Origin: Emticicia sp.
GTDB taxonomy: Bacteria; Bacteroidota; Bacteroidia; Cytophagales; Spirosomataceae
Length of the DNA: 50,136 bases
Direction: 5' to 3'
NCBI GenBank assembly: GCA_023254245.1
Contig: JALQYE010000007.1
Coordinates: 1 to 50,136 of the forward strand
The first letter of the stretch is position 1. The number at the start of each line of letters is the position of its first letter. The translations under genes and the position numbers were made by a program. This document shows positions 712 to 14,721 of the stretch, piece by piece. The notes under the pieces were generated by a model that searched no databases, was not told the origin of the DNA, and saw only the letters and a program-made list of their open reading frames with translations.

Positions 712-1624
712 AACTTGTTTAGGATTATAAAAGATTTCCAAAATAGGATGAATTTTGTGGTGCGAATCATAAAATCAAACTAAATGGAAATCTTGAGTAA
801 AGATAAAATAGAACACTATATTTTACCAAATTTAAGTGTCGGTTTACGTGGCAAAGAGTGCGAAACAGGCTTACTTTTAGAAATTGTTTCAGCAATTTTA
901 TACCGATTAAAAACAGGATGCCAATGGCGACAGCTACCTGTGAAACAGTTTTTTAGTAATAAAATATTGACGTGGCAAGGAGTTTATTATCATTTCAACG
1001 AATGGGTCAAAGACGGCTCATGGACAAAAGTTTGGCTTGAAATTTTAAAGACAAATCGCCAATATTTAGATATGTCAAGTGTGCAACTTGATGGTAGCCA
1101 TACACCAGCCAAACGAGGTGGTGAAGAGGTAGGTTATCAAGGCAGAAAAGCCTCAAAAACAACTAATTTACTATTTTTGGCGGACAATAAAGGGCAAATG
1201 TTGGCTTGTGCAAATCCGCAAGAGGGACAACATAATGACCTTTTTAATATCAAGGAACTCTTTAATGAACTTTGTGAAATACTCATCAAAGCGGGCATCA
1301 ATTTGAATGGTTTATTCCTCAATGCTGATGCTGGATTTGACAGTCAAGAACTTCGAGAACTATGTTATCAAAAAGGAATTTTCGCTAATATTGATTTTAA
1401 TCCCAGAAACAACGCTAATCAAAATGACAATTATGTCTATTTTGATGAAGAACTTTATAAAAGACGTACAGTCATTGAGCAAGCCAACGCTTGGTTAGAC
1501 AGTTTTAAAGTACTTTTAATTCGATATGAAACAAAGGCTATAAATTGGGTTGCGTTTAATTTTATCGCTTTTGCCGTATGTTTTCTAAGAAAAATTAACT
1601 TAAATACAAAATCCTAAACAAGTT
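712..1624 (+). mobile_element. IS5-family insertion sequence, apparently complete
   Basis: A single transposase gene is bounded by a perfect 15-bp terminal inverted repeat: AACTTGTTTAGGATT at 712-726 and its reverse complement at 1610-1624. The total length of 913 bp is within the usual range for small IS5-group elements. No direct target duplication is evident: the bases just outside are GAGAA on the left and CATCA on the right. The insertion could be old, the true ends could differ by one or two bases, or the duplication could be only 2-3 bp. It sits between the outer-membrane protein gene and the 3' end of the wecA-like gene without interrupting either. Confidence 0.85.
784..1617 (+). CDS. 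IS5-family DDE transposase
   Basis: 277 residues and uninterrupted. An N-terminal DUF4096-like segment (LLEIVSAILYRLKTGCQWRQLP, about residues 31-52) is typical of IS5-group enzymes. The DDE triad can be placed at D103 (QLDGSHT), D182 (NADAGFDS) and E232 in the signature YKRRTVIEQANAWLDSFK, which fits the Y-x2-R-x3-E pattern. Because one frame carries both parts, no programmed frameshift is needed. The ATG at 784 lies 57 bp inside the left inverted repeat, and the stop overlaps the right one. All catalytic residues are present, so the element could be active. Confidence 0.92.
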   Translation: MEILSKDKIEHYILPNLSVGLRGKECETGLLLEIVSAILYRLKTGCQWRQLPVKQFFSNKILTWQGVYYHFNEWVKDGSWTKVWLEILKTNRQYLDMSSVQLDGSHTPAKRGGEEVGYQGRKASKTTNLLFLADNKGQMLACANPQEGQHNDLFNIKELFNELCEILIKAGINLNGLFLNADAGFDSQELRELCYQKGIFANIDFNPRNNANQNDNYVYFDEELYKRRTVIEQANAWLDSFKVLLIRYETKAINWVAFNFIAFAVCFLRKINLNTKS

Positions 1625-5228: not shown

Positions 5229-6605
5229 TTATTGCTCGAATGCGGTTCGAATAGTATCAAAAATTCTTCCTAAGATACTAATGTCTTTGGTAATAACTTC
5301 GGCGTTGCCTTGCATTCCGTAGCGAAAAGAAAGCTTTTTCTTTGAGGTAGTCGTGAGTCCATTTGGAAGATTTACATAGACTTTATAAACACTCTGACTA
5401 CCTGTATTTGAAGTTATCGTTGACGACACATCGGCAATGGAAGCTACCTTTCCTTTTAACATTCCAAATTCTTTCTTACTGAAATTGTCTAAGATAATAT
5501 TTACGTTTTGTCCTTCGGCAATTTTGCCCGAACCCGATGCTTCCAAAAATAATTCTCCCACATACGAGCTTGAAAGAGCATTATTAATATTGCCCGTTGG
5601 TGGGATTATATTGGCAATTTCTTGGTTTTCATTGATGTATGAATTTTGCTTGATGAAATTCAAATAATTTACTTTTCCCGCAATTGTTGCTTTTAGTAGG
5701 TATCTTTGCTCCCAAACGTTGAGCTGGTTAAGCAGATTTGTATAGGCATCAAGAAGTAAATTATTAGAGTTAAGCTGACGGTCTTTTTGTTCAAAATCAA
5801 CTTCAACTTTTTGGCTTTGAAGTGTAATTATTCTATTTTGGTTTTCATCATAACTCGACTTTGCTGCTTCTACTGCCTTTAGTTTCTGAAAAACCTCATC
5901 TTGCTTTTGCTCTAATTGCTCAGTTGAAATACTACCAGCTTTGTGTAATGCTTTATAACGATTATCAAAATTTTTCTTTTGTAGATTATATTCATTCTCT
6001 AAAAGCTGAACTTGACGTTTTAGGCGTTCAGAAATCTGAATGTATTCAGAAATTTGCTTGTTGATACTTAGTTTACGCAAACTTGTGTTTTGTCCTCTAA
6101 TATCAAGCGAACCAATCTCTTTAATTTTTAATAAAAAATTATTGTAAGGCACTTGAAGTTCGCCCAATTGTAAATCATCAGTAAATTGACTGAGTGAGTC
6201 TGCATTTAATGTACTTACCGAACTGTTTTTGATAAAATTAAGCTTTTGTTTTAGTTTTAGAATATCATCATATTTGGTGGCACTTTTCAGATACCCTAAA
6301 ACATCATTTTCTTTAACCAACGATTTATCTGCTACGATAAGTACGATATTACCACTCGTGCGAGCCACAAGCGGCACGGGGGGATTATTTGAGGTTATGT
6401 TTATTTTTCCTTTGATTACATCTGGGTATTTAATAAAATAACTAAGAACTAATATGGTGGCAACAATACCAAATATGACCGTAAGACCCCAACGGAGTGT
6501 CCAGCCTGGCATTTCTGATAATATTTCATCTACTTCTTCACTTCGACGTGGCATATTTACTACACGTACGGGAGAAGGGTTCGTTTGTTGAATTTCGTTA
6601 GGCAT
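5229..6605 (-). CDS. HlyD-family membrane-fusion protein of the peptide exporter
   Basis: 458 residues. The short cytoplasmic N-terminus (RRSEEVDEILSEMPGWTLRWG) leads into a single transmembrane helix at about residues 38-58. Next come a lipoyl/barrel-sandwich half (ITSNNPPVPLVARTSGNIVLIVADKSLVKENDVLGYL), a long coiled-coil hairpin at about 120-300, and the second half plus beta-barrel (ATIAGKVNYLNFIKQNSYINENQEIANIIPP). It would bridge the inner-membrane ABC protein to the TolC-like channel. It is the last gene of the unit ABC-TolC-HlyD, 7 bp after the TolC-like gene. The SEEVxEILSxMP..LRWG start is typical of Bacteroidota adaptors paired with C39 exporters. Confidence 0.9.
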   Translation of the reverse strand: MPNEIQQTNPSPVRVVNMPRRSEEVDEILSEMPGWTLRWGLTVIFGIVATILVLSYFIKYPDVIKGKINITSNNPPVPLVARTSGNIVLIVADKSLVKENDVLGYLKSATKYDDILKLKQKLNFIKNSSVSTLNADSLSQFTDDLQLGELQVPYNNFLLKIKEIGSLDIRGQNTSLRKLSINKQISEYIQISERLKRQVQLLENEYNLQKKNFDNRYKALHKAGSISTEQLEQKQDEVFQKLKAVEAAKSSYDENQNRIITLQSQKVEVDFEQKDRQLNSNNLLLDAYTNLLNQLNVWEQRYLLKATIAGKVNYLNFIKQNSYINENQEIANIIPPTGNINNALSSSYVGELFLEASGSGKIAEGQNVNIILDNFSKKEFGMLKGKVASIADVSSTITSNTGSQSVYKVYVNLPNGLTTTSKKKLSFRYGMQGNAEVITKDISILGRIFDTIRTAFEQ

Positions 6606-6612
6606 TCTTAAA

Positions 6613-7911
6613 TCAATAATTTTTATCCAATTCTCCGATAAGCTTTCTAATAGTAATTTCGTAACTTTTTAGAGAATACATAGATTCTAAATAATTAAAA
6701 TTTGACTGTACATACTCTAATTGAATCGTGCGATATTCCAGTGCGTTTGAAAAGCCACTCTCTAAACGACCTTTAACTAATTGAAGGCTATTTCCTAAGT
6801 TTTTTACTAATTGTTGGTTCAATTTAACGGCTTTTAGCTGATTTTGGTAAGCTACAAAGGCATTGGTTAATTCAATTGAAAGTTCTTGTTTTAATTCACC
6901 AAGCTGAAGTTCACCAATCTTGTTTTGAATGATAGCTTCATTGATACTTCTTTTTATTTCGCCACCGTTATAAATTGGTATTGAAGCTCGTAAGCCTATG
7001 GTGAAGTTTGAAATATTTCCTTTAATCGGTGTATTCCCTTCAAATCGAGTCATAGAATAGCTTTTCCCAAGCCTACTGTTTAAGCCAATATTTGGATTAC
7101 GTTGACTTCTAACTAAATCAATTTTAGTTTTATTCAGATAACTAACTACTTGTTTGGCTAAAATTTCATTGTTTTGGCTGAACATTTTACTTCTAAGCAC
7201 TTCGAAATTAAGCTCATCTTTGTTTACATCTAACTTATCAGTCAAAACATAATTTTTAGATTTATCTGACCCTAAAACTAAATTTAGTTTGCTGAGTGCC
7301 GCTTGATATAAGTTTTCTTGTTGAAGATATGATGAAGAATCTATAAGAAATGAGTTTTCAGCTCTCAAAACTTCAAAATTACTGGCTTTACCAAGACTTA
7401 GTTGAAGTTTAGTATCATTGAGTCTGAGTTTCGATAAACTTTTTGTTTCTTTTAAAACCTGACTTTTTTCTCTTTCAATAATTGTTTTGTAATAAGATTC
7501 TATCACATCTTTGATAACACTGGCTTTGGTATTTTTTAGTAATTGCTCATTTTCTTTACTTAAATAATTAAGTTGAGTTTTCTTAATTGTTCGTTGATTT
7601 CCATTGTAAATCGTATAATTTGTATTAAAATCAGCATTTAAGCTATTATCACCGAAAACTCCCTTTACGAAGTTGATAGGAGAGTTGTTATTGCTATATA
7701 GGTTATTTTGTCCAACATCAAAACTTACTGACGGAAATCGCTCCGTAACACCTACTTGTTGATTAAGTCTGGCGATTTCGAGTTGTTGTTTTGAGATTTG
7801 TACTTTATAATTATTTTGCAAGCCAATTTTGATAGCATCTTCGAGCGAAAGCTGCGATTGTGCCATTAGCTTACAGGAAAAGAGTAAAAATATGATTAAA
7901 AATTTATTCAT
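6613..7911 (-). CDS. TolC-like outer-membrane efflux protein
   Basis: 432 residues. The signal peptide is MNKFLIIFLLFSCKLMAQ, followed by the classic opening LSLEDAIKIGLQNNYKVQISKQQLEIARLNQQVGVTERFPSVSF. Two OEP repeats are visible as two long helical hairpins, each followed by barrel strands (about 25-215 and 225-430). The second starts around NEILAKQVVSYLNKTKIDLVRSQRNPNIGLNSRLG. It should trimerise as the outer-membrane channel of the peptide exporter. It starts 9 bp after the ABC transporter stop and is followed 7 bp later by the HlyD-like gene, so the three are surely co-transcribed. Confidence 0.9.
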   Translation of the reverse strand: MNKFLIIFLLFSCKLMAQSQLSLEDAIKIGLQNNYKVQISKQQLEIARLNQQVGVTERFPSVSFDVGQNNLYSNNNSPINFVKGVFGDNSLNADFNTNYTIYNGNQRTIKKTQLNYLSKENEQLLKNTKASVIKDVIESYYKTIIEREKSQVLKETKSLSKLRLNDTKLQLSLGKASNFEVLRAENSFLIDSSSYLQQENLYQAALSKLNLVLGSDKSKNYVLTDKLDVNKDELNFEVLRSKMFSQNNEILAKQVVSYLNKTKIDLVRSQRNPNIGLNSRLGKSYSMTRFEGNTPIKGNISNFTIGLRASIPIYNGGEIKRSINEAIIQNKIGELQLGELKQELSIELTNAFVAYQNQLKAVKLNQQLVKNLGNSLQLVKGRLESGFSNALEYRTIQLEYVQSNFNYLESMYSLKSYEITIRKLIGELDKNY

Positions 7912-7920
7912 ATAATCTGA

Positions 7921-10113
7921 TTAATTGCCCAGTTCTAATTGATTCTTAACTAATTCATAATAAAATCCTCGTCGTTCGACCAATTCTTGATGTTTTCCTT
8001 CCTCAACGATTTCGCCCTGATGTAGTACCACAATATGGTCGGCATTTCGTACTGTGCTTAGGCGATGAGCAATAACCAAGACTGTTCGCCCAGCATAAAA
8101 CTGATTGAGATTTTCCATAATAAATTTCTCGTTATTGGCGTCTAATGCACTGGTTGCTTCATCAAAAAACAAGAATGGTGGATTCTTATAAATTGAACGA
8201 GCAATCAAAATTCGTTGTTTCTGCCCAATACTCAGCCCTTTTCCTTCGCCACCAATTTTAGTAGCTAAACCAAGTGGTGAAGATTCTATAATATCAAAAA
8301 TATTAGAAGCATAAACTGCATAATTGAGGCGGTCAGGGTCAGTTATTTCATCACTTCCTACAATGTTTTTCTCAATCGTATCCGAAAAAATAAAGCCGTC
8401 TTGCATCACTACACCGCATTGCTTTCGCCACCAACCTGTATGATAATCTTGCAGTTTTCTATTCCCAATAAAAATGTTTCCTCCGGTTGGGTCATAAAAC
8501 TTCAGTAATAATTTCATCAAGGTGGTTTTTCCACTACCGCTACTACCCACAAGAGCCGTTACTTTACCTTCTGAAAGAACTAAATTGATATTCTTTAATA
8601 TTTGTGGTGAAGACGGCCCGCCATAACTAAAGCTGAGGTTTTGAAAAATGATGTCTCGGTAATAAGAAAATTGAGCAGTACGTTGAACATCGTCTGGATT
8701 TTCATCTTCTTTTTTATGTATTTCATTCAATCGGTCAAGGCTTATTCGGGCATCTTGTGCAGAATGAACAAAATTTAGAAGTGTTCCGAGTGGAGCATTG
8801 GCTTGCCCGACAATTCCTTGTATCGAAAGCATAGTACCAAAAGTAATATCGCCCTCAACTACACCCTTAGCAGCCAAGAATGTTATTAATATGTCTTTCA
8901 GATGCGTAATAAAAAATGCTCCCGTTTCTTGATATTGGCTAAGCTTAAGGTCTTCGATTCCAATCTTGAATAATCTTGCTTGAATATTTTCCCATCGCCA
9001 ACGTTTTTGGTCTTCAATATTTTGAAGCTTTATTTCATTGATTCCTGTCACTAATTCAACTAAAGCACTTTGATTGTCAGCCAGTCGGTCAAATCTTCTC
9101 AAGTTAATGCGTCTACGGTATTTCAAGAAAACATAAATCCATGTAAAATACAGAATCATGCTAACAATGAAAATCAAGAAAATTGGTACACTGAATATAG
9201 CCAATAGTACACTAAAAATCAGCATATTAAATACGGAGAAGATTACACTCAGAGAAGAACTCGTTAGGAAGTCCTGTATAATGGAATGGTCGCTGATTCG
9301 CTGAAGGATGTCTCCTTGATTCCGAGTTTCAAAAAATGAAATAGGTAGCCGCATGAGCTTGGCTAAAAAATCAGAAATCAAAGAAATATTTACCCGATTA
9401 CTAATGAGCATCAAAATCCAGTTCTGAATAAAATTTGACACCATTTGACCAAAGAATAAAGCTAACTGCCCAAAAAGAATCAGATATATAAAATTCATAT
9501 CCTGATACTCAATCCCTCGGTCAACGACTGCTTGGGTCAAGAAAGGAAAAATAAAAGACAGGATAGCCCCAAGAAGCATCCCAACTCCGATTTGAATGAA
9601 AAAGCGTTTATACGGACGTAAATACCCCCAGAAATATTTGAGAGATAAACCTTCACGTTTGTCATCTTCGCTTTCATAGAACTTTTGCGTTGGCTCAAGT
9701 AAGAGGGCAATGCCTGGTGTGCCTTCTGGATAAACACCATTGTGCCAAGCCTCCAGAAACTCGCTATGTGTATATTTTTCAAGACCCAGTGCAGGGTCAG
9801 CAACCATAACGTGGGTTTTTGTTACCTCATACACTACTACAAAGTGGCGTTGACGCCAAAATACAATACATGGTTTTGGGGCGTCTTCAAGCAGAATATT
9901 AAATGGGATTTTTACTGCTTTTGTCCGAAAACCTATTGATTTAGCTCCATCACTTATACCAGCTAATGAAACACCAGTTTGGGTAATAAATGTTTTATCT
10001 CTAAGAAACTCTAAACTATAATTTTTACCGTAAAACTTCGAAATCATGCGTAGGCAAGTGGGTCCGCAGTCTACTGCATCAAGCTGACGGTAATGTGGGA
10101 AAACTTTTTTCAC
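7921..10113 (-). CDS. C39 peptidase-containing ABC exporter (double-glycine processing)
   Basis: 730 residues in the PCAT/LagD/ComA arrangement: C39 cysteine peptidase (about 1-130), six-helix exporter domain (about 165-440), ATPase (about 480-720). The peptidase triad is in place: C16 in DAVDCGPTC, H90 in RQRHFVVVYE and D106 in VADPALG. The ATPase has Walker A GSSGSGKTT (near residue 524), signature LSIGQKQR, Walker B FLFFDEATSALD and the H-loop IAHRLS. It should cleave leaders after Gly-Gly and export the core. Substrates are almost certainly the three GG-leader peptides encoded just upstream on the same strand. The ATG at 10113 is followed directly by the conserved KKVFPHYRQLDAVDCGP start. 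Confidence 0.95.
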   Translation of the reverse strand: MKKVFPHYRQLDAVDCGPTCLRMISKFYGKNYSLEFLRDKTFITQTGVSLAGISDGAKSIGFRTKAVKIPFNILLEDAPKPCIVFWRQRHFVVVYEVTKTHVMVADPALGLEKYTHSEFLEAWHNGVYPEGTPGIALLLEPTQKFYESEDDKREGLSLKYFWGYLRPYKRFFIQIGVGMLLGAILSFIFPFLTQAVVDRGIEYQDMNFIYLILFGQLALFFGQMVSNFIQNWILMLISNRVNISLISDFLAKLMRLPISFFETRNQGDILQRISDHSIIQDFLTSSSLSVIFSVFNMLIFSVLLAIFSVPIFLIFIVSMILYFTWIYVFLKYRRRINLRRFDRLADNQSALVELVTGINEIKLQNIEDQKRWRWENIQARLFKIGIEDLKLSQYQETGAFFITHLKDILITFLAAKGVVEGDITFGTMLSIQGIVGQANAPLGTLLNFVHSAQDARISLDRLNEIHKKEDENPDDVQRTAQFSYYRDIIFQNLSFSYGGPSSPQILKNINLVLSEGKVTALVGSSGSGKTTLMKLLLKFYDPTGGNIFIGNRKLQDYHTGWWRKQCGVVMQDGFIFSDTIEKNIVGSDEITDPDRLNYAVYASNIFDIIESSPLGLATKIGGEGKGLSIGQKQRILIARSIYKNPPFLFFDEATSALDANNEKFIMENLNQFYAGRTVLVIAHRLSTVRNADHIVVLHQGEIVEEGKHQELVERRGFYYELVKNQLELGN

Positions 10114-10296
10114 TCAGTAATATTTTAGTTAATTGCAATTGAAGATACGAAATTTGCCTTTGAAAAGATGTTTCTGCGGGCTGTTATACTTAGCTTCGTA
10201 CGCTGTTCAATAGAAAACAAAAACTAAGCCAATAAATAAAAAGAAGTATTTTATTTGCCGATTTGTTTTTTATCGCAATAGGTTACGTATATTAAT

Positions 10297-10333
10297 AAAA
10301 AAAAGCACTTTCAAGTCGAAAAGTGCTTTTTTT
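10297..10333. terminator. Rho-independent terminator between peptide genes and exporter
   Basis: The stem AAAGCACTTT / AAAGTGCTTT has flanking A and T runs on both sides, so it can work in either direction. On the minus strand it follows the last precursor gene (stop at 10353) and precedes the exporter gene by about 180 bases. It may limit read-through, so that peptide mRNA exceeds exporter mRNA. Confidence 0.8.
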
Positions 10334-10352
10334 ACTATACTTATTTTAAAAA

Positions 10353-10640
10353 TTATGCTGGTAGGCAAGTAGTTGTAGGCTTACAAGTACTTAACGAAAA
10401 TGAGAATGAAAACGAAATAGTTGGCTTACAAAGCGTTGTCGTAGGTGTCGGACATGTTGGAACTGTTGGACACGTTGGTACTGTGTAGCAAGGTGTTGGA
10501 GCTGGTGGTGGACATGTAGGAACTGTATAACAGGTTGTCTTTGGAAGACAAGTTCCTAATAAGCTTAATAGTCCGAAAGTACCACCTGCAACGTTATTAG
10601 TTTCGTTAGCTGAGATTTCAAATTGTTCGAAATTTTTCAT
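10353..10640 (-). CDS. Double-glycine leader precursor peptide 1, Cys/Pro/Thr-rich
   Basis: 95 residues. The leader MKNFEQFEISANETNNVAGG is 20 residues and ends in the GG cleavage site. The predicted core is 75 residues with nine Cys, built from TVPTCPPPAPTPC, TVPTCPTVPTCPTPTTTLC and similar units. An alternating SFSFSFSLS stretch lies near the C-terminus, and the end is TCKPTTTCLPA. Leader and position mark it as a substrate of the C39 exporter 240 bp downstream. It is the third intact member of a tandem array and the closest to the exporter. No known bacteriocin family is recognised. Antimicrobial, signalling or structural roles are all open. Confidence 0.85.
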   Translation of the reverse strand: MKNFEQFEISANETNNVAGGTFGLLSLLGTCLPKTTCYTVPTCPPPAPTPCYTVPTCPTVPTCPTPTTTLCKPTISFSFSFSLSTCKPTTTCLPA

Positions 10641-10650
10641 TTTGTTTTAG

Positions 10651-10666
10651 TTTTAAAAAGGTTCAC
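10651..10666 (-). promoter_or_regulatory. Shared upstream motif GTGAACCTTTTTAAAA, copy 1
   Basis: On the minus strand GTGAACCTTTTTAAAA ends 10 bases before the ATG of precursor 1. Near-identical copies precede the other three precursor starts, so it is probably a translation-initiation or post-transcriptional control element of this peptide family. Confidence 0.55.
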
Positions 10667-10682
10667 AATTATTTTACTATTT

Positions 10683-10928
10683 TTAATTTCCTGAGGTTCC
10701 TACTTGTGATGGTAAACAAACTGGAGTAGGCGGGGTGCAAGTTGTTGTACAAGTGGTTGGAGGAGGTGGACAAGTTGGTGTGTAACAGGTAGTTTTAGGA
10801 ATGTAGCTTGTAATTTTCGGGATACAATAACTGTAACTAAAACTAAAGTTAAAACCAAAGCAGAATGTTCCGCCTTCTGCACTGTTCATTTCGTTTAATG
10901 TTACTTCAAATTGGTCAAAAGTTTTCAT
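10683..10928 (-). CDS. Double-glycine leader precursor peptide 2, Cys/Pro/Thr-rich
   Basis: 81 residues from the ATG at 10928. An in-frame ATG three codons earlier (10937) is possible, but alignment with the paralogues favours MKTFDQFE as the start. The 20-residue leader ends SAEGG. The 61-residue core begins TFCFGFNFSFSYSYC, an alternating aromatic/Ser strand, continues with IPK and Cys/Pro/Thr units (TPTCPPPPTTC, TTTC, PVCLPS), and ends VGTSGN. Seven Cys are in the core. Precursor 1 starts 42 bp downstream. The leader is closely related to precursor 3, and so is most of the core, indicating tandem duplication. Confidence 0.85.
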   Translation of the reverse strand: MKTFDQFEVTLNEMNSAEGGTFCFGFNFSFSYSYCIPKITSYIPKTTCYTPTCPPPPTTCTTTCTPPTPVCLPSQVGTSGN

Positions 10929-10947
10929 ATCTATCATGTTTAAAAGG

Positions 10948-10963
10948 TTTCAAAAAGGTTCAC
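10948..10963 (-). promoter_or_regulatory. Shared upstream motif GTGAACCTTTTTGAAA, copy 2
   Basis: Minus-strand GTGAACCTTTTTGAAA lies about 20 bases before the MKTF start codon of precursor 2. It matches the elements before the paralogous genes, with one change. Confidence 0.55.
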
Positions 10964-10995
10964 TGTTTTTATATCACTCAATTTTAATTTACTTA

Positions 10996-11253
10996 TCAAT
11001 AGCCAGTTGCTCCAACTGCTGATGGTAGACAACTCGTAGTTGGTGTTGTACAAGTTTTAGTGGTGGTGCAAGTTGTTGGTGTGGGAGTTGGGCAAGTATA
11101 TGTTGGTGTTGTACAAGCTGTTGTTGGGGGGGCACAGTAAGTAGTTTTTGGAGCACAATAACTAAAACTTAGATTAAAGCCAAAACAGAATGTACCCCCA
11201 TCAATAGTGTTTATTTCGCTCGAAGAGATTTCAAATTGGTCAAAATTTTTCAT
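10996..11253 (-). CDS. Double-glycine leader precursor peptide 3, Cys/Pro/Thr-rich
   Basis: 85 residues from the ATG at 11253. A longer reading beginning at 11292 would add 13 residues that the paralogues lack and would run through the shared upstream motif, so I reject it. The leader MKNFDQFEISSSEINTIDGG is followed by a 65-residue core: TFCFGFNLSFSYCAPKTTYC, then Cys every 4-8 residues within Thr/Pro stretches (TACTTPTYTC, PTPTPTTC, TKTC, TSCLPS), ending VGATGY. Eight Cys are in the core. It is the first intact member of the array, and 67 bp separate its stop from precursor 2. Confidence 0.85.
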   Translation of the reverse strand: MKNFDQFEISSSEINTIDGGTFCFGFNLSFSYCAPKTTYCAPPTTACTTPTYTCPTPTPTTCTTTKTCTTPTTSCLPSAVGATGY

Positions 11254-11271
11254 TAGAATTTTAATTAGTTG

Positions 11272-11288
11272 TTTTAAAAAGATTACAC
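11272..11288 (-). promoter_or_regulatory. Shared upstream motif, copy 3 (GTGTAATCTTTTTAAAA)
   Basis: Minus-strand GTGTAATCTTTTTAAAA sits 18 bases before the ATG of precursor 3. It follows ATTGAG, as does the copy before the decayed fourth precursor. Confidence 0.5.
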
Positions 11289-11385
11289 TCAATATTTAAT
11301 TTATATACAATTTTTTTCTTGTTAAGTTGCTGTCATGAATCCGATTTATCGTACGATTAGATAGCCAATTCTGAAAAAAAAGTTT

Positions 11386-11565
11386 TCAGAAAAGTTTGGC
11401 ACGCTCTAAAGCATGGCACATAATTTGCACTATAAATACATAGAGATACTTAAACAGTGAAGCTGCAAGTTTAGGCAAGTAGAAATTGCTGCATAAGCCG
11501 AAATCTCTACTTACCATTTGATTCATCTCAATAATAGAGATTTCGAAGGGTACGAAGTTAATCAT
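11386..11565 (-). pseudogene. Decayed fourth precursor peptide (GG site lost)
   Basis: An open frame of 59 residues starts MINFVPFEISIIEMNQM. It aligns position by position with the other leaders (MKNFDQFEISSSEINTI), but the GG becomes SR (VSRDFG). The following FGLCSNFYLPK still echoes the core start FCFGFN..YC.PK. After that the Cys/Pro/Thr repeats are replaced by an unrelated sequence ending ALERAKLF. The shared upstream motif is intact at 11572-11587. The peptide could not be cut by a C39 peptidase in the usual way, so I read it as a decaying copy. A role as a non-cleaved decoy cannot be excluded. Confidence 0.6.
11413..11430 (+). promoter_or_regulatory. Sigma-54-like -24/-12 element A
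   Basis: ATGGCACATAATTTGCAC has GG and GC separated by exactly 10 bases, matching the sigma-54 consensus TGGCAC-N5-TTGC. It points right, inside the decayed precursor and opposite to the peptide genes. No plus-strand gene is evident downstream. Confidence 0.4.
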
Positions 11566-11571
11566 TTTAAC

Positions 11572-11587
11572 TTTTTTAATGGTTCAC
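11572..11587 (-). promoter_or_regulatory. Shared upstream motif GTGAACCATTAAAAAA, copy 4
   Basis: Minus-strand GTGAACCATTAAAAAA lies six bases before the ATG of the decayed precursor. It supports common ancestry of that ORF with the three intact precursors. Confidence 0.45.
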
Positions 11588-11634
11588 TCAATAGTAATTA
11601 TCTCAATAGTATAGGTTATATTGTTGTGTGTGCT

Positions 11635-11740: not shown

Positions 11741-11970
11741 TTGTCTAAGAGACCACATATATGCTATTTCCTTGGTTATTTACATGTGTTTTAATAAACA
11801 TCTGTAAAAATCCTTTTTTTAGGTGTTTATAGCACAAAAATGATACCACTTAATCATTTTTGGCAATATAAATATTTTTACTGCTTAATCTACCGAACAG
11901 TCATGCATTTTCTTCCACAATTAATTTTCTAAAAACCTGCTGTCATAAATAATCTTTGTGTTTTGGGTAT
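11741..11970. other. Intergenic stretch without a supported gene
   Basis: AT-rich sequence between the sigma-54-like elements and the amidohydrolase terminator. The only plus-strand frames beginning with ATG are 23 codons (11761-11832) and about 30 codons. Neither has homologues I recognise. I see no RNA gene here. Confidence 0.5.
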
Positions 11971-11971
11971 A

Positions 11972-11999
11972 AAAAAAGGATTACCCAAGTAACCCTTTT
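11972..11999 (-). terminator. Terminator after the amidohydrolase-like gene
   Basis: On the minus strand AAAAGGGTTAC / GTAATCCTTTT forms an 11-bp stem with one mismatch, followed by a T run. It lies 16 bases after the stop of the amidohydrolase-like gene. Confidence 0.7.
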
Positions 12000-12015
12000 C
12001 TATTTCATTCATCTT

Positions 12016-13320
12016 TTATTTTCCGCCGATTCCGTATTTATCAACGTATTTTTTGTAGAGCCTCTTTTGCTTATCGTCAAGGTCAATTTTTTTACCTCTG
12101 ATAAATGCGTAGCTTACTTTGTTAGTTCTCATATCCAAAATATCTCCTTCCGAAACCGCAATAGTAGCAAGTTTTCCAACTTCGAGTGTACCAACTTGTT
12201 TGTCGATTCCTAAGATTTTGGCATTATTGAGGGTAATCATTTTTAATGCATCTTCTTTATCCATGCCAAAAGCTGCACTTGTTCCTGCTACGAATGGTAG
12301 ATTACGAGTTTTATAAAATTCTTCAGTATAAAACATACCCGTAAGAATTCCTGCTTTCATCAAACGATTTGGAAGTTTATACGGATTCCAAACGTCTTCA
12401 TCTGAGTTATTTGGCAATCGGTGTGTTGGCGAAACAATCACTGGAATGTTATTGGTTTTCAAGAAATCAAGAGCTAAATCTGCTTCTTCACCGCCCACAA
12501 CTACAATATTTTTGATTTTAAATTTCTGAGCCATCTGACAGGCTTCAATTATCTCTTTACCGTAGTTTGTACGAATGTAAAGTTTTTTCGAGCCATCAAA
12601 TAAACCTCTCATAGCTTCAAGTTTAGCATTTTTTGGGTTTGGATTGCTTATTTCGCTATATGCAAGAGCATCGGCAATAAATCCTTGAAGCTCATTTTTT
12701 TGCTCAATGTATTTGTCGTTCTTTTTTACAACAAATCTTGCTTCTTCTGGACTAAACTGACGAGAAATCAAAGCAGGATAGTTCAACCAAACGCCATCAT
12801 CTTTCTTTAGAGCTGCATCTTCCCAGTTCCAGCCGTCGTATTCCATTACAGATGATGTTCCCGAAATAATTCCGCCTTCGGGAGTGGTTTGTCCAATCAA
12901 AACACCATTGCCACGAACCGTTGGGATAACCTCCGAATCAGTATTGTGTGCAATTAAAGCACGAATATTTGGGTTGAATTGACCTGTTTCGGCTTGGTCG
13001 AAAGTTGAGCGAACCGAGCCAATTTCAACTAAACCAAGCAAAGCAGCAGGAGCGATGATGCCAGGATAAACAGATTTACCTGCAACATTTATAACTTCAG
13101 TTGCGTTTTTATCAAAATTTGTGTTGGCATCGCCAATGGCAGTAATAACTCCTTTATCGAAAACAATTGTACCGTTCTGAATGATTTTTCCGTCACCAAT
13201 ATGTATTGTTCCTCCAATCAATGCAATTGGTTTTGACTGCGGAGCCGCAGGTGCAGGGTTTTGGGCAAAAACGCCAAATTTTATTAATAGTAAGCTTAGA
13301 AGTGATAAATGTTTTTTCAT
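12016..13320 (-). CDS. Secreted amidohydrolase-fold protein lacking metal ligands
   Basis: 434 residues from the ATG at 13320. The frame extends 18 codons further upstream, but the signal peptide MKKHLSLLSLLLIKFGVFAQ begins here. The fold is recognisable from the early strands (ALIGGTIHIGDGKIIQNGTIVFDKGVITAIG) and the closing ALKMITLNNAKILGIDKQVGTLEVGKLATIAVSEGD, as in imidazolonepropionase-like enzymes. The usual PG.ID.H.H metal motif is instead YPGIIAPAALLGL. The later histidines and the aspartate of (N/S)SDDA are also absent (PFVAGTSAAFG). It probably does not hydrolyse anything itself and may be a partner of the larger amidohydrolase at 17793-20876, whose N-terminal half is similarly degenerate. 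Confidence 0.8.
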   Translation of the reverse strand: MKKHLSLLSLLLIKFGVFAQNPAPAAPQSKPIALIGGTIHIGDGKIIQNGTIVFDKGVITAIGDANTNFDKNATEVINVAGKSVYPGIIAPAALLGLVEIGSVRSTFDQAETGQFNPNIRALIAHNTDSEVIPTVRGNGVLIGQTTPEGGIISGTSSVMEYDGWNWEDAALKKDDGVWLNYPALISRQFSPEEARFVVKKNDKYIEQKNELQGFIADALAYSEISNPNPKNAKLEAMRGLFDGSKKLYIRTNYGKEIIEACQMAQKFKIKNIVVVGGEEADLALDFLKTNNIPVIVSPTHRLPNNSDEDVWNPYKLPNRLMKAGILTGMFYTEEFYKTRNLPFVAGTSAAFGMDKEDALKMITLNNAKILGIDKQVGTLEVGKLATIAVSEGDILDMRTNKVSYAFIRGKKIDLDDKQKRLYKKYVDKYGIGGK

Positions 13321-13493: not shown

Positions 13494-14234
13494 ATGAGTA
13501 AATTATATACAAATTTAGCGAATGTTTATCATGAAATATATCAAACCCTGTTTGATTACGACGAAGAGTTTAAGTTTTACGATAAGTATTTAAGAGAAAA
13601 CCAGATTACGAGCGTTGTTGAAATTGGTTGTGGTACTGGAAACTTAGCCAAAAGATTACATGAAGCAGGATACGAATATCTTGGAATTGACCTCTTTGAT
13701 GAAATGCTGAAAATTGCCCAAAAGACGGCTCCATTGGCTAAATTTCGACAAGCTGATGCCCGAAGTTTTGAGCTGGAAGAAAAGCAAGATTGTGTTATCC
13801 TAACAGGGAGAAGCATTAGCTATTTAACCACTAATAATGACTTAATTAATACATTTAACTGTATTGCTGAAAGTTTAAAACAAGGCGGGCTATTGATGTT
13901 TGATGCCATTGATGCCAGCAAGTTATTTATTGATTTTACGAATGAAAAATTGGATACGCTAATGGCAACTTTTGGTTCGAACGAATACAAACGAATAAGT
14001 AAGAGCAAGAAGAATTTACAATCTGGCTGGACGTGGGATTGGGAGTCGGAATATTATCTAAAAAGTAATATTGGTGAATACGAAAAAATCGGTGAAGATT
14101 TTTCGACGCTTCGGGCGTTTTTAAAAGAAGAATTAAGTTTGTTTTTTAAAATCACTGGTTTTGAATTAGTGAAAATTTTACCTAAGCAATCGTATGCGTG
14201 GGATGATAATTTTTTTATTGTAAAAAAGGTATAA
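13494..14234 (+). CDS. Class I SAM-dependent methyltransferase
   Basis: 246 residues. Motif I VVEIGCGTGNLAKRL (about 41-55), acidic end of strand 2 YLGIDLFDEML (about 62-72), motif II region FRQADARSF, and a post-motif CVILTGRSISYL where a Thr-Gly-Arg replaces the more common hydrophobic Asp loop. The central GGLLMFDAIDASKLF closes the Rossmann core. The substrate is unknown. The next gene (GNAT acetyltransferase) starts after a single base, so the two are co-translated and may act in one modification pathway. It is divergent from the amidohydrolase-like gene. Confidence 0.88.
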   Translation: MSKLYTNLANVYHEIYQTLFDYDEEFKFYDKYLRENQITSVVEIGCGTGNLAKRLHEAGYEYLGIDLFDEMLKIAQKTAPLAKFRQADARSFELEEKQDCVILTGRSISYLTTNNDLINTFNCIAESLKQGGLLMFDAIDASKLFIDFTNEKLDTLMATFGSNEYKRISKSKKNLQSGWTWDWESEYYLKSNIGEYEKIGEDFSTLRAFLKEELSLFFKITGFELVKILPKQSYAWDDNFFIVKKV

Positions 14235-14235
14235 C

Positions 14236-14721
14236 ATGAATATTAGACGTTTCGATAAACAAAAAGATGCAGAAGCTGTTTGGGAAATCTTGCATTTAGT
14301 GGTTAAAGCTGGCGACACATTGGTCTTTGCACCCGATTCCACAAAAGAGAAGATGCTGGCTTATTGGTCAGCCGATGATAAATATGCGTATGTATGTGAA
14401 ATTGATAATCAAATTGTAGGCACATTTTATATCAAGCAAAATCAACCTGATTTAGGGGCACATGTAGCCAATGCGGGTTATTTAGTCCACCCAAATCAAA
14501 GAGGAAAGGGTATCGCAGAAACTATGTGTAGATTTTCATTAGACGAAGCACGTCGTCTGGGTTTTAAAGCGATGCAGTTTAATATAGTAGTAAGCACGAA
14601 TGAGGTAGCGGTAAGGCTTTGGCAAAAATGCGGATTTGAAATTATTGGCCGTTTACCTAAAGTTTTTCAGCATCAAAGTCTCGGTTTAGTCGATGCTTTT
14701 GTGATGTATCAATGGTTATGA
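14236..14721 (+). CDS. GNAT-family N-acetyltransferase
   Basis: 161 residues. The acetyl-CoA-binding motif A is VHPNQRGKGIAETMC (R/Q-x-x-G-x-G/A). Motif B is MQFNIVVSTNEVAVRLWQKCGFEIIGRLPKVF, typical of RimI-like/phosphinothricin-type GNATs. The C-terminal LVDAFVMYQWL resembles YncA-like family members, which often act on amino acids or small amines. The substrate is not determinable here. The ATG follows the methyltransferase stop by 1 bp. A strong terminator follows at 14727. Confidence 0.9.
   Translation: MNIRRFDKQKDAEAVWEILHLVVKAGDTLVFAPDSTKEKMLAYWSADDKYAYVCEIDNQIVGTFYIKQNQPDLGAHVANAGYLVHPNQRGKGIAETMCRFSLDEARRLGFKAMQFNIVVSTNEVAVRLWQKCGFEIIGRLPKVFQHQSLGLVDAFVMYQWL

What the first reader, a model, noticed from the sequence alone, without database searches (positions are those of the whole stretch)
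5229..11565. Complete C39 exporter with three Cys/Pro/Thr-rich double-glycine precursors
Seen: three tandem short genes with 20-residue leaders ending in GG, then on the same strand a C39-peptidase ABC exporter with an intact Cys/His/Asp triad, a TolC-like channel and an HlyD-like adaptor. Known: C39 exporters remove leaders after Gly-Gly and export the core. Inference: the set makes and secretes 61-75-residue peptides unlike the bacteriocin or lanthipeptide cores I know. No tailoring enzyme (LanB/C/M, radical SAM, YcaO, ATP-grasp) or immunity gene is visible, so the product may be a disulfide-linked unmodified peptide or an Thr/Ser-glycosylated one.
Basis: partly seen in the sequence, partly recalled or inferred. 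Interest (0 to 1): 0.87.

Follow-up and report, generated by a model that had tools for sequence, protein, structure and literature searches.

The report
Secreted peptides with off-site glycosyltransferase
A bacterium carries three small genes for unusual threonine-, proline- and cysteine-rich peptides beside the machine that would cut and secrete them, and a close relative of one of them elsewhere in the same genome sits beside a sugar-attaching enzyme and an odd enzyme-like partner, which suggests sugar-decorated secreted peptides whose purpose is still unknown.

Summary
Observation confirmed: three tandem precursors on the minus strand (85, 81, 95 aa; 20-residue GG leaders), a terminator, then a complete C39-ABC / TolC / HlyD exporter. 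The locus is conserved in Emticicia aquatilis (precursor dN/dS 0.15-0.24).

No modifying gene typical of this kind lies beside the locus, but one set lies elsewhere in the genome. A fourth precursor on contig C222 (48 of 87 aligned residues identical to P3) sits beside a GT2 glycosyltransferase and a 250-aa protein. The E. aquatilis orthologue of that protein is predicted to have the LanB-elimination / thiopeptide [4+2]-synthase fold (Z 12.4-14.1; next 5.8). Both genes occur in 6 of the 7 family genomes with clear precursors (222 searched); the exception, G052, has precursor and exporter only. Three of the six gave no LanB or LanC hit. A homologous GT, with a weakly matching partner, sits in a split-LanB lanthipeptide cluster in G189.

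Best reading: a glycocin-like RiPP family, modified in trans by GT2 plus a SpaB_C-fold partner, cleaved after GG and secreted. Export is well supported; glycosylation is inferred; biological role unknown. New variant of a known kind.

The parts
10996..11253 (-). precursor P1, 85 aa, leader MKNFDQFEISSSEINTIDGG, core 65 aa (8 Cys, 22 Thr, 9 Pro)
   Evidence: orthologue in E. aquatilis, dN/dS 0.148
10683..10928 (-). precursor P2, 81 aa, leader MKTFDQFEVTLNEMNSAEGG, core 61 aa (7 Cys); an ATG three codons upstream (10937) is an alternative start
   Evidence: dN/dS 0.174
10353..10640 (-). precursor P3, 95 aa, leader MKNFEQFEISANETNNVAGG, core 75 aa (9 Cys); the one most like the glycosyltransferase-linked precursors (TFGLLSLL ... 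ISFSFS)
   Evidence: 48 of 87 identical to the C222 precursor; dN/dS 0.242
11386..11565 (-). ORF0, 59-aa degenerate precursor-like ORF; GG replaced by SR (GR in E. aquatilis)
   Evidence: leader-region repeat copy, 63%; same length in E. aquatilis, whose copy scores E 0.003 with the precursor profile; dN/dS 0.51
10298..10333 (-). terminator-like hairpin followed by T run, between P3 and the exporter
   Evidence: inverted repeat I4; fold of 10290-10352: -16.1 kcal/mol, z -4.16, 0 of 200 shuffles as stable
7921..10113 (-). C39-peptidase ABC exporter, 730 aa, GTG start
   Evidence: (TIGR01193 1.5e-128, below its cut-off); 98% identical to the E. aquatilis protein
6613..7911 (-). TolC-like outer-membrane channel, 432 aa
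   Evidence: OEP 2.4e-46; dN/dS 0.044
5229..6605 (-). HlyD-like adaptor, 458 aa
   Evidence: HlyD_3 4.4e-8, TIGR01843 1.3e-24 below its cut-off; dN/dS 0.02

Best explanation
The window holds the export half of a two-locus RiPP system. Three precursors are made; after modification in the cytoplasm the C39 domain of the ABC exporter cuts after Gly-Gly, and the ABC / HlyD / TolC conduit releases Thr/Pro/Cys-rich cores of 61-75 residues from the cell. The modifying half is encoded on contig C222: a GT2 glycosyltransferase that I expect to put sugars on Thr, Ser or Cys of the cores, working with a protein of the LanB-elimination (SpaB_C) fold that I expect to bind leader or core for it. The remaining cysteines would pair as disulfides. 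The product works like a glycocin: a secreted, disulfide-containing glycopeptide, most likely for antagonism. Shown by computation: genes, selection, export genes, homology of P3 to the C222 precursor, co-occurrence of precursor with GT and partner, predicted fold. Inferred: action in trans on P1-P3, sugar and site, role of the partner, cleavage, biological role.
For: P3 is homologous to the C222 precursor, which lies beside GT and partner. GT + partner + precursor are together in all 6 genomes that have the partner; in Emticicia, 3 of 11 genomes have precursors and the same 3 have GT and partner (Fisher p 0.006). Over 222 family genomes the 2x2 table is 6/1/1/214 (p 3e-10, not corrected for relatedness). 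GT and partner genes overlap by 4 nt in 4 of 6 loci. A GT homologue (37% identical over 325 columns) lies in a lanthipeptide cluster with its own C39 exporter. Three genomes of genus g23 have the pair but no hit for LanB-N, LanB-C or LanC. The two precursor loci without an exporter are in the two genomes that have the window-type export locus; in the window genome only one C39 was found. P1 and P2 leaders have Ile/Met/Val at -7 and -12, as most PCAT substrates do (passage of PMC12457901); P3 fits at -12 only. High Thr and odd Cys counts in P2 and P3 suit glycosylation (inference).
Against: No sugar, mass or enzyme assay. G052 (99% complete) has precursor and exporter but no GT at E<=1e-30 and no partner hit, so the pair is not always needed or was lost. 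The GT resembles general GT2 enzymes; no glycocin transferase stood out among its PDB matches and its C-terminal part is poorly modelled. No thioredoxin-like oxidase, usual in glycocin clusters, was seen beside the loci. E. aquatilis has two C39 hits, so its C2 precursor could use the other. The window genome is 81.6% complete. The partner fold was predicted for the E. aquatilis orthologue (80% identical), from 5 sequences.
Confidence: 0.55

Rival explanations
1. P1-P3 are exported unmodified apart from disulfides (class II bacteriocin-like or structural peptides); GT and partner serve only the C222 precursor.
For: No GT or partner beside the window-type locus in either Emticicia genome. G052 has precursor and exporter alone. 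P1 and P2 differ from the GT-linked precursors after the leader (TFCFGFN rather than TFGLLSLL).
Against: Both genomes with the window-type locus also carry GT and partner; P3 is homologous to the GT-linked precursor along its length.
Confidence: 0.25
2. The SpaB_C-fold partner is catalytic and the pair makes dehydroamino acids: GT activates Thr/Ser with a sugar, the partner eliminates it, and Cys adds to give thioether rings without LanB or LanC.
For: Fold matches elimination domains of NisB, MadB and MibB as well as [4+2] synthases. Three genomes have the pair without any LanB or LanC hit. Cores are rich in both Thr and Cys.
Against: No histidine is invariant among the five partner sequences, whereas a histidine serves in NisB elimination (recalled). 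G189 has a canonical elimination protein beside a separate partner-like protein. A sugar is a poorer leaving group than glutamyl (recalled chemistry).
Confidence: 0.1
3. The cores are not toxins but secreted mucin-like matrix or surface peptides.
For: Pro/Thr-rich cores with no acidic residues; no immunity gene recognised; a Crp-like regulator gene lies by the GT-linked precursors and by the G052 precursor.
Against: C39/GG export of small cores is typical of bacteriocins and signals; no repeat-length proteins or anchors seen.
Confidence: 0.1

Closest known systems
Glycocins (sublancin, glycocin F, ThgA/OrgA)
   Same: GG-type leader, C39 PCAT exporter, GT2 glycosyltransferase, Cys-rich core with Ser/Thr available (glycocin features from passages)
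   Different: Characterised ones are from Bacillota (passage); here Bacteroidota, with a TolC/HlyD conduit, 61-75-residue Thr/Pro-rich cores, a SpaB_C-fold partner, no thioredoxin seen, and modifying genes on another contig from the exporter in Emticicia. Gram-negative glycocin clusters have been predicted (Singh and Rao 2021, seen only as a citation)
Class I lanthipeptides of Bacteroidota with split LanB (pinensin type)
   Same: GG leader with C39 protease is frequent (passage of PMC7268733); elimination-domain-like protein; G189 carries a GT homologue inside such a cluster
   Different: No LanB-N, canonical LanB-C or LanC at the precursor loci, nor any hit in three genomes that carry the system; leaders lack the LxLxK motif by eye
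Thiopeptide [4+2] synthases (PbtD, TbtD) and LanB elimination domains
   Same: Predicted fold of the 250-aa partner
   Different: 9-15% identity, shorter by about 50 residues, no invariant His, no azoline or dehydratase genes alongside
Bacteroidetocins
   Same: Peptides of Bacteroidota with antagonistic role (abstract start seen)
   Different: Class IIa-like peptides; sequence not compared here

Membership tests
C39 peptidase ABC exporter (PCAT) with type I conduit | C39, TM and ATPase domains in one protein with HlyD and TolC partners | tested here: met
   motif strings
C39 peptidase ABC exporter (PCAT) with type I conduit | adjacent GG-leader substrates | tested here: met
   exporter adjacent in 7 of 9 precursor loci
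C39 peptidase ABC exporter (PCAT) with type I conduit | cleavage after GG and export | not testable with these tools
   needs an assay
glycocin | GT2 glycosyltransferase near precursor and PCAT | tested here: inconclusive
   met in G118, G061, G093, G047; in the window genome GT is on another contig than the exporter
glycocin | glycosyltransferase of the SunS / GccA kind | tested here: inconclusive
   GT2 domains and fold; no glycocin transferase recognised among 23 PDB sequence matches or the 50 fold rows shown
glycocin | sugar on Cys, Ser or Thr of the core | not testable with these tools
   needs mass spectrometry
glycocin | thioredoxin-like oxidase in the cluster (common, not universal) | tested here: inconclusive
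   none noticed in ORF lists of the loci; not searched with a family model
class I lanthipeptide | LanB glutamylation domain and LanC cyclase with the precursor | tested here: not met
   no PF04738, PF14028 or PF05147 hit in G061, G093, G047 (0 of 3); in G000 only a PF04738 fragment at C17:320-658
LanB elimination / thiopeptide cyclase fold (partner protein only) | SpaB_C-type fold | tested here: met
   model pLDDT 82.9; 12 best entries Z 12.4-14.1, rmsd 3.5-5.2, next 5.8
LanB elimination / thiopeptide cyclase fold (partner protein only) | sequence match to Lant_dehydr_C | tested here: not met
   no Pfam or NCBIfam hit; PF14028 finds nothing in G000, G061, G093, G047

The most novel reading that the evidence does not exclude
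A new lanthipeptide-like route in which a glycosyltransferase activates Thr/Ser and a stand-alone SpaB_C-fold protein eliminates the sugar, so that the Cys-rich cores form thioether rings without LanB or LanC; part of the peptides would leave through an exporter locus encoded apart from these enzymes.
Probability: 0.08. Interest if true: 0.88.

Novelty: new variant of a known kind. Interest (0 to 1): 0.58.

Why it matters
If true, it brings a glycocin-like pathway to cultured Bacteroidota with a partner protein not seen in the glycocin papers I read passages of, and shows that the modifying enzymes can be encoded apart from exporter and precursors, so that cluster-based mining of the window alone would call the peptides unmodified. 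It also gives a setting to test what stand-alone LanB-elimination-fold proteins do, a question raised in print (passage of PMC7268733).

Tried and rejected
Rejected as chance: weak precursor-profile hits. (200 genomes): 7 matched at E<=0.01; I kept 4 (G000, G094, G061, G093) and dropped G074, G102, G139, where the script found no precursor-like GG ORF. (390 genomes): 6 matched; kept G000, G047, G061; dropped G026 and G416 (no precursor-like ORF) and G479 (not examined). (222 genomes): 11 matched; kept 7 with E<=3e-26 best score; dropped G141 (neighbourhood read), G080, G008, G125 (E 2.4e-4 to 7.4e-3; neighbourhoods not read).

Led nowhere: plasmid searches (none; one partial Acinetobacter match to the GT); scan for Bacteroidota promoters by regular expression (none); 5' motif GTGAACCWTWAAAAA is not above chance in the window, and ATTGAGTG only modestly so (6 against 2.2 expected, 3 of 100 shuffles as many). 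The GT catalytic half matches 61 viral-contig loci, mostly over residues 1-200 of 332; not followed. In the phylum sample the GT was found in 1 of 395 genomes at E<=1e-25, the window's own. General Bacteroidota O-glycosylation (motif with Asp, recalled) considered and set aside: the cores have no Asp. The weak profile match between partner and the 271-aa G189 protein (probability 25%, E 7.5e-4, 82 columns) supports homology only together with gene order. Not searched: thioredoxins, immunity genes, metagenome collection; the place of the second C39 hit of E. aquatilis was not listed.
Full report
What is there. On the minus strand of the window three short genes follow one another: P1 11253-10996, P2 10928-10683, P3 10640-10353. 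Their 20-residue leaders end in GG; cores are 65, 61 and 75 residues, with 8, 7 and 9 Cys, 22, 14 and 20 Thr, and no D, E, R or H. After a strong terminator-like hairpin come a C39-ABC exporter, a TolC-like channel and an HlyD-like adaptor. Upstream of P1, ORF0 (11565-11386) is a fourth copy with a leader-like start but no GG.

Is it real. Search with the three-precursor profile in 200 family genomes found the whole locus in G094, which keeps gene order and flanks. dN/dS is 0.148, 0.174, 0.242 for P1-P3, 0.51 for ORF0, and 0.012-0.044 for the exporter genes: the precursors are selected as proteins, ORF0 perhaps weakly.

The second locus. With a profile of 8 precursors, the window's own genome gave a fourth precursor on contig C222. 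BLASTP aligns it with P3 at 48 of 87 identical; both cores begin TFGLLSLL and hold ISFSFS. Beside it are a 250-aa protein and a GT2 / Glyco_transf_7C-type glycosyltransferase, but no exporter in the 18 kb read. Domains of the GT were scanned in the G061 and G093 copies and against NCBIfam for C222 and G047. The same three genes are together in E. aquatilis C2, G118, G061, G093 and G047. The last four also have a C39 exporter there; E. aquatilis C2, like C222, does not.

Distribution. In 222 family genomes the 250-aa protein was found in 6, the GT in the same 6 and G189 (E<=1e-30), clear precursors in the same 6 and G052, and a C39 peptidase in 152. C39 presence is thus too common to be telling by itself; adjacency is (7 of 9 precursor loci). 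In Emticicia 3 of 11 genomes have precursors, and the same 3 have the pair. Relatedness is not corrected for. G052 is a real exception: precursor, exporter and regulator-like gene, no GT or partner. A scan of 84,980 species genomes with the partner profile gave 5 loci, a pattern-seeded scan that can miss distant relatives.

What the partner is. No Pfam or NCBIfam hit; PHROGs gave only weak hits (E 0.05-0.34). AlphaFold2 on five sequences, first the E. aquatilis orthologue, gave pLDDT 82.9, pTM 0.84. Foldseek: 8 PDB chains at E<=0.001, labelled pyridine synthases PbtD and TbtD and a [4+2] aza-cyclase; next NisB, MadB, MibB (E 0.0013-0.0046). VIA-align: 12 entries, all pyridine synthases, aza-cyclase, LanB-type dehydratases or TsrL, Z 12.4-14.1, then 5.8. 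So the fold is that of the LanB elimination domain. No His is invariant in the five sequences.

What the GT is. GT2 family by Pfam and fold; catalytic region well modelled, the last 55 residues not. Nothing in the matches identifies acceptor or sugar.

G189. Here a GT homologue lies with a C39 exporter, HlyD, a Cys-rich GG-type precursor, canonical Lant_dehydr_C, LANC_like and Lant_dehydr_N proteins. Next to the GT is a 271-aa protein weakly matching the partner (less than that for the canonical protein). This ties the GT to RiPP biosynthesis from another side and suggests that the partner is not the LanB elimination enzyme.

Lanthipeptide test. PF04738, PF14028 and PF05147 gave no hit in G061, G093, G047; they did in E. 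aquatilis (2, 2 and 3 hits) and G052; G118 had 2, 2 and 0; the window genome had one PF04738 fragment only.

How it most likely works. Precursors made at either locus are modified in the cytoplasm by GT and partner, cut after GG by the C39 domain and exported. That the window exporter serves the C222 precursor is supported by it being the only C39 found in that genome, which is 81.6% complete. That GT acts on P1 and P2 is less certain than on P3.

Known work. Glycocins characterised to 2022 were from Bacillota (passage of PMC9576775); clusters in Gram-negatives have been predicted (passage of PMC7616364, citing Singh and Rao 2021, not held). Stand-alone elimination-domain proteins in class I clusters, possibly with another function, are noted in PMC7268733 (passages). 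My searches listed no paper on this family by title or abstract start; most subscription papers are not in the library, so prior description cannot be excluded.

Verdict. Real, conserved, probably a glycocin-like RiPP system of Cytophagales with an unusual partner and split location. Interest 0.58.

Noticed in passing
window 11386-11565, minus strand: ORF0: precursor-like ORF with the GG lost, same length in E. aquatilis; decaying copy or a changed role.
   Followed up: partly
window 10975-10982, 11286-11293, 11585-11592, minus strand: ATTGAGTG lies upstream of P2, P1 and ORF0, and upstream of the GT-linked precursors of C222, E. aquatilis and G118; 6 copies in the window against 2.2 expected.
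   Followed up: partly
L015 about 11850-12390: Remains of a second GG precursor, broken by stops, between a GldC-like gene and the exporter of L. soyangensis; G061 and G047 have an open one in the matching place.
   Followed up: no
L027 8896-9459, L031 11276-11839, L032 12785-13459, L028 9841-10431, L015 8124-8690, L054 9458-10117: A Crp-like regulator gene lies convergent to the GT-linked precursors and to the G052 precursor; only the L015 copy was scanned (cNMP_binding). In L014 it reads as two ORFs.
   Followed up: partly
L063 4040-17083 (G189): Split-LanB lanthipeptide cluster that also holds a GT, a second elimination-like protein and a zinc-dehydrogenase-like protein.
   Followed up: partly
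window 784-1617: IS4/5-type transposase gene.
   Followed up: no
window 13494-14721, plus strand: Methyltransferase and GNAT acetyltransferase genes next to each other, kept in E. aquatilis; no evidence that they belong to the peptide system.
   Followed up: no
L065-L125 (viral contigs): 61 loci encode relatives of the catalytic half of the GT.
   Followed up: no
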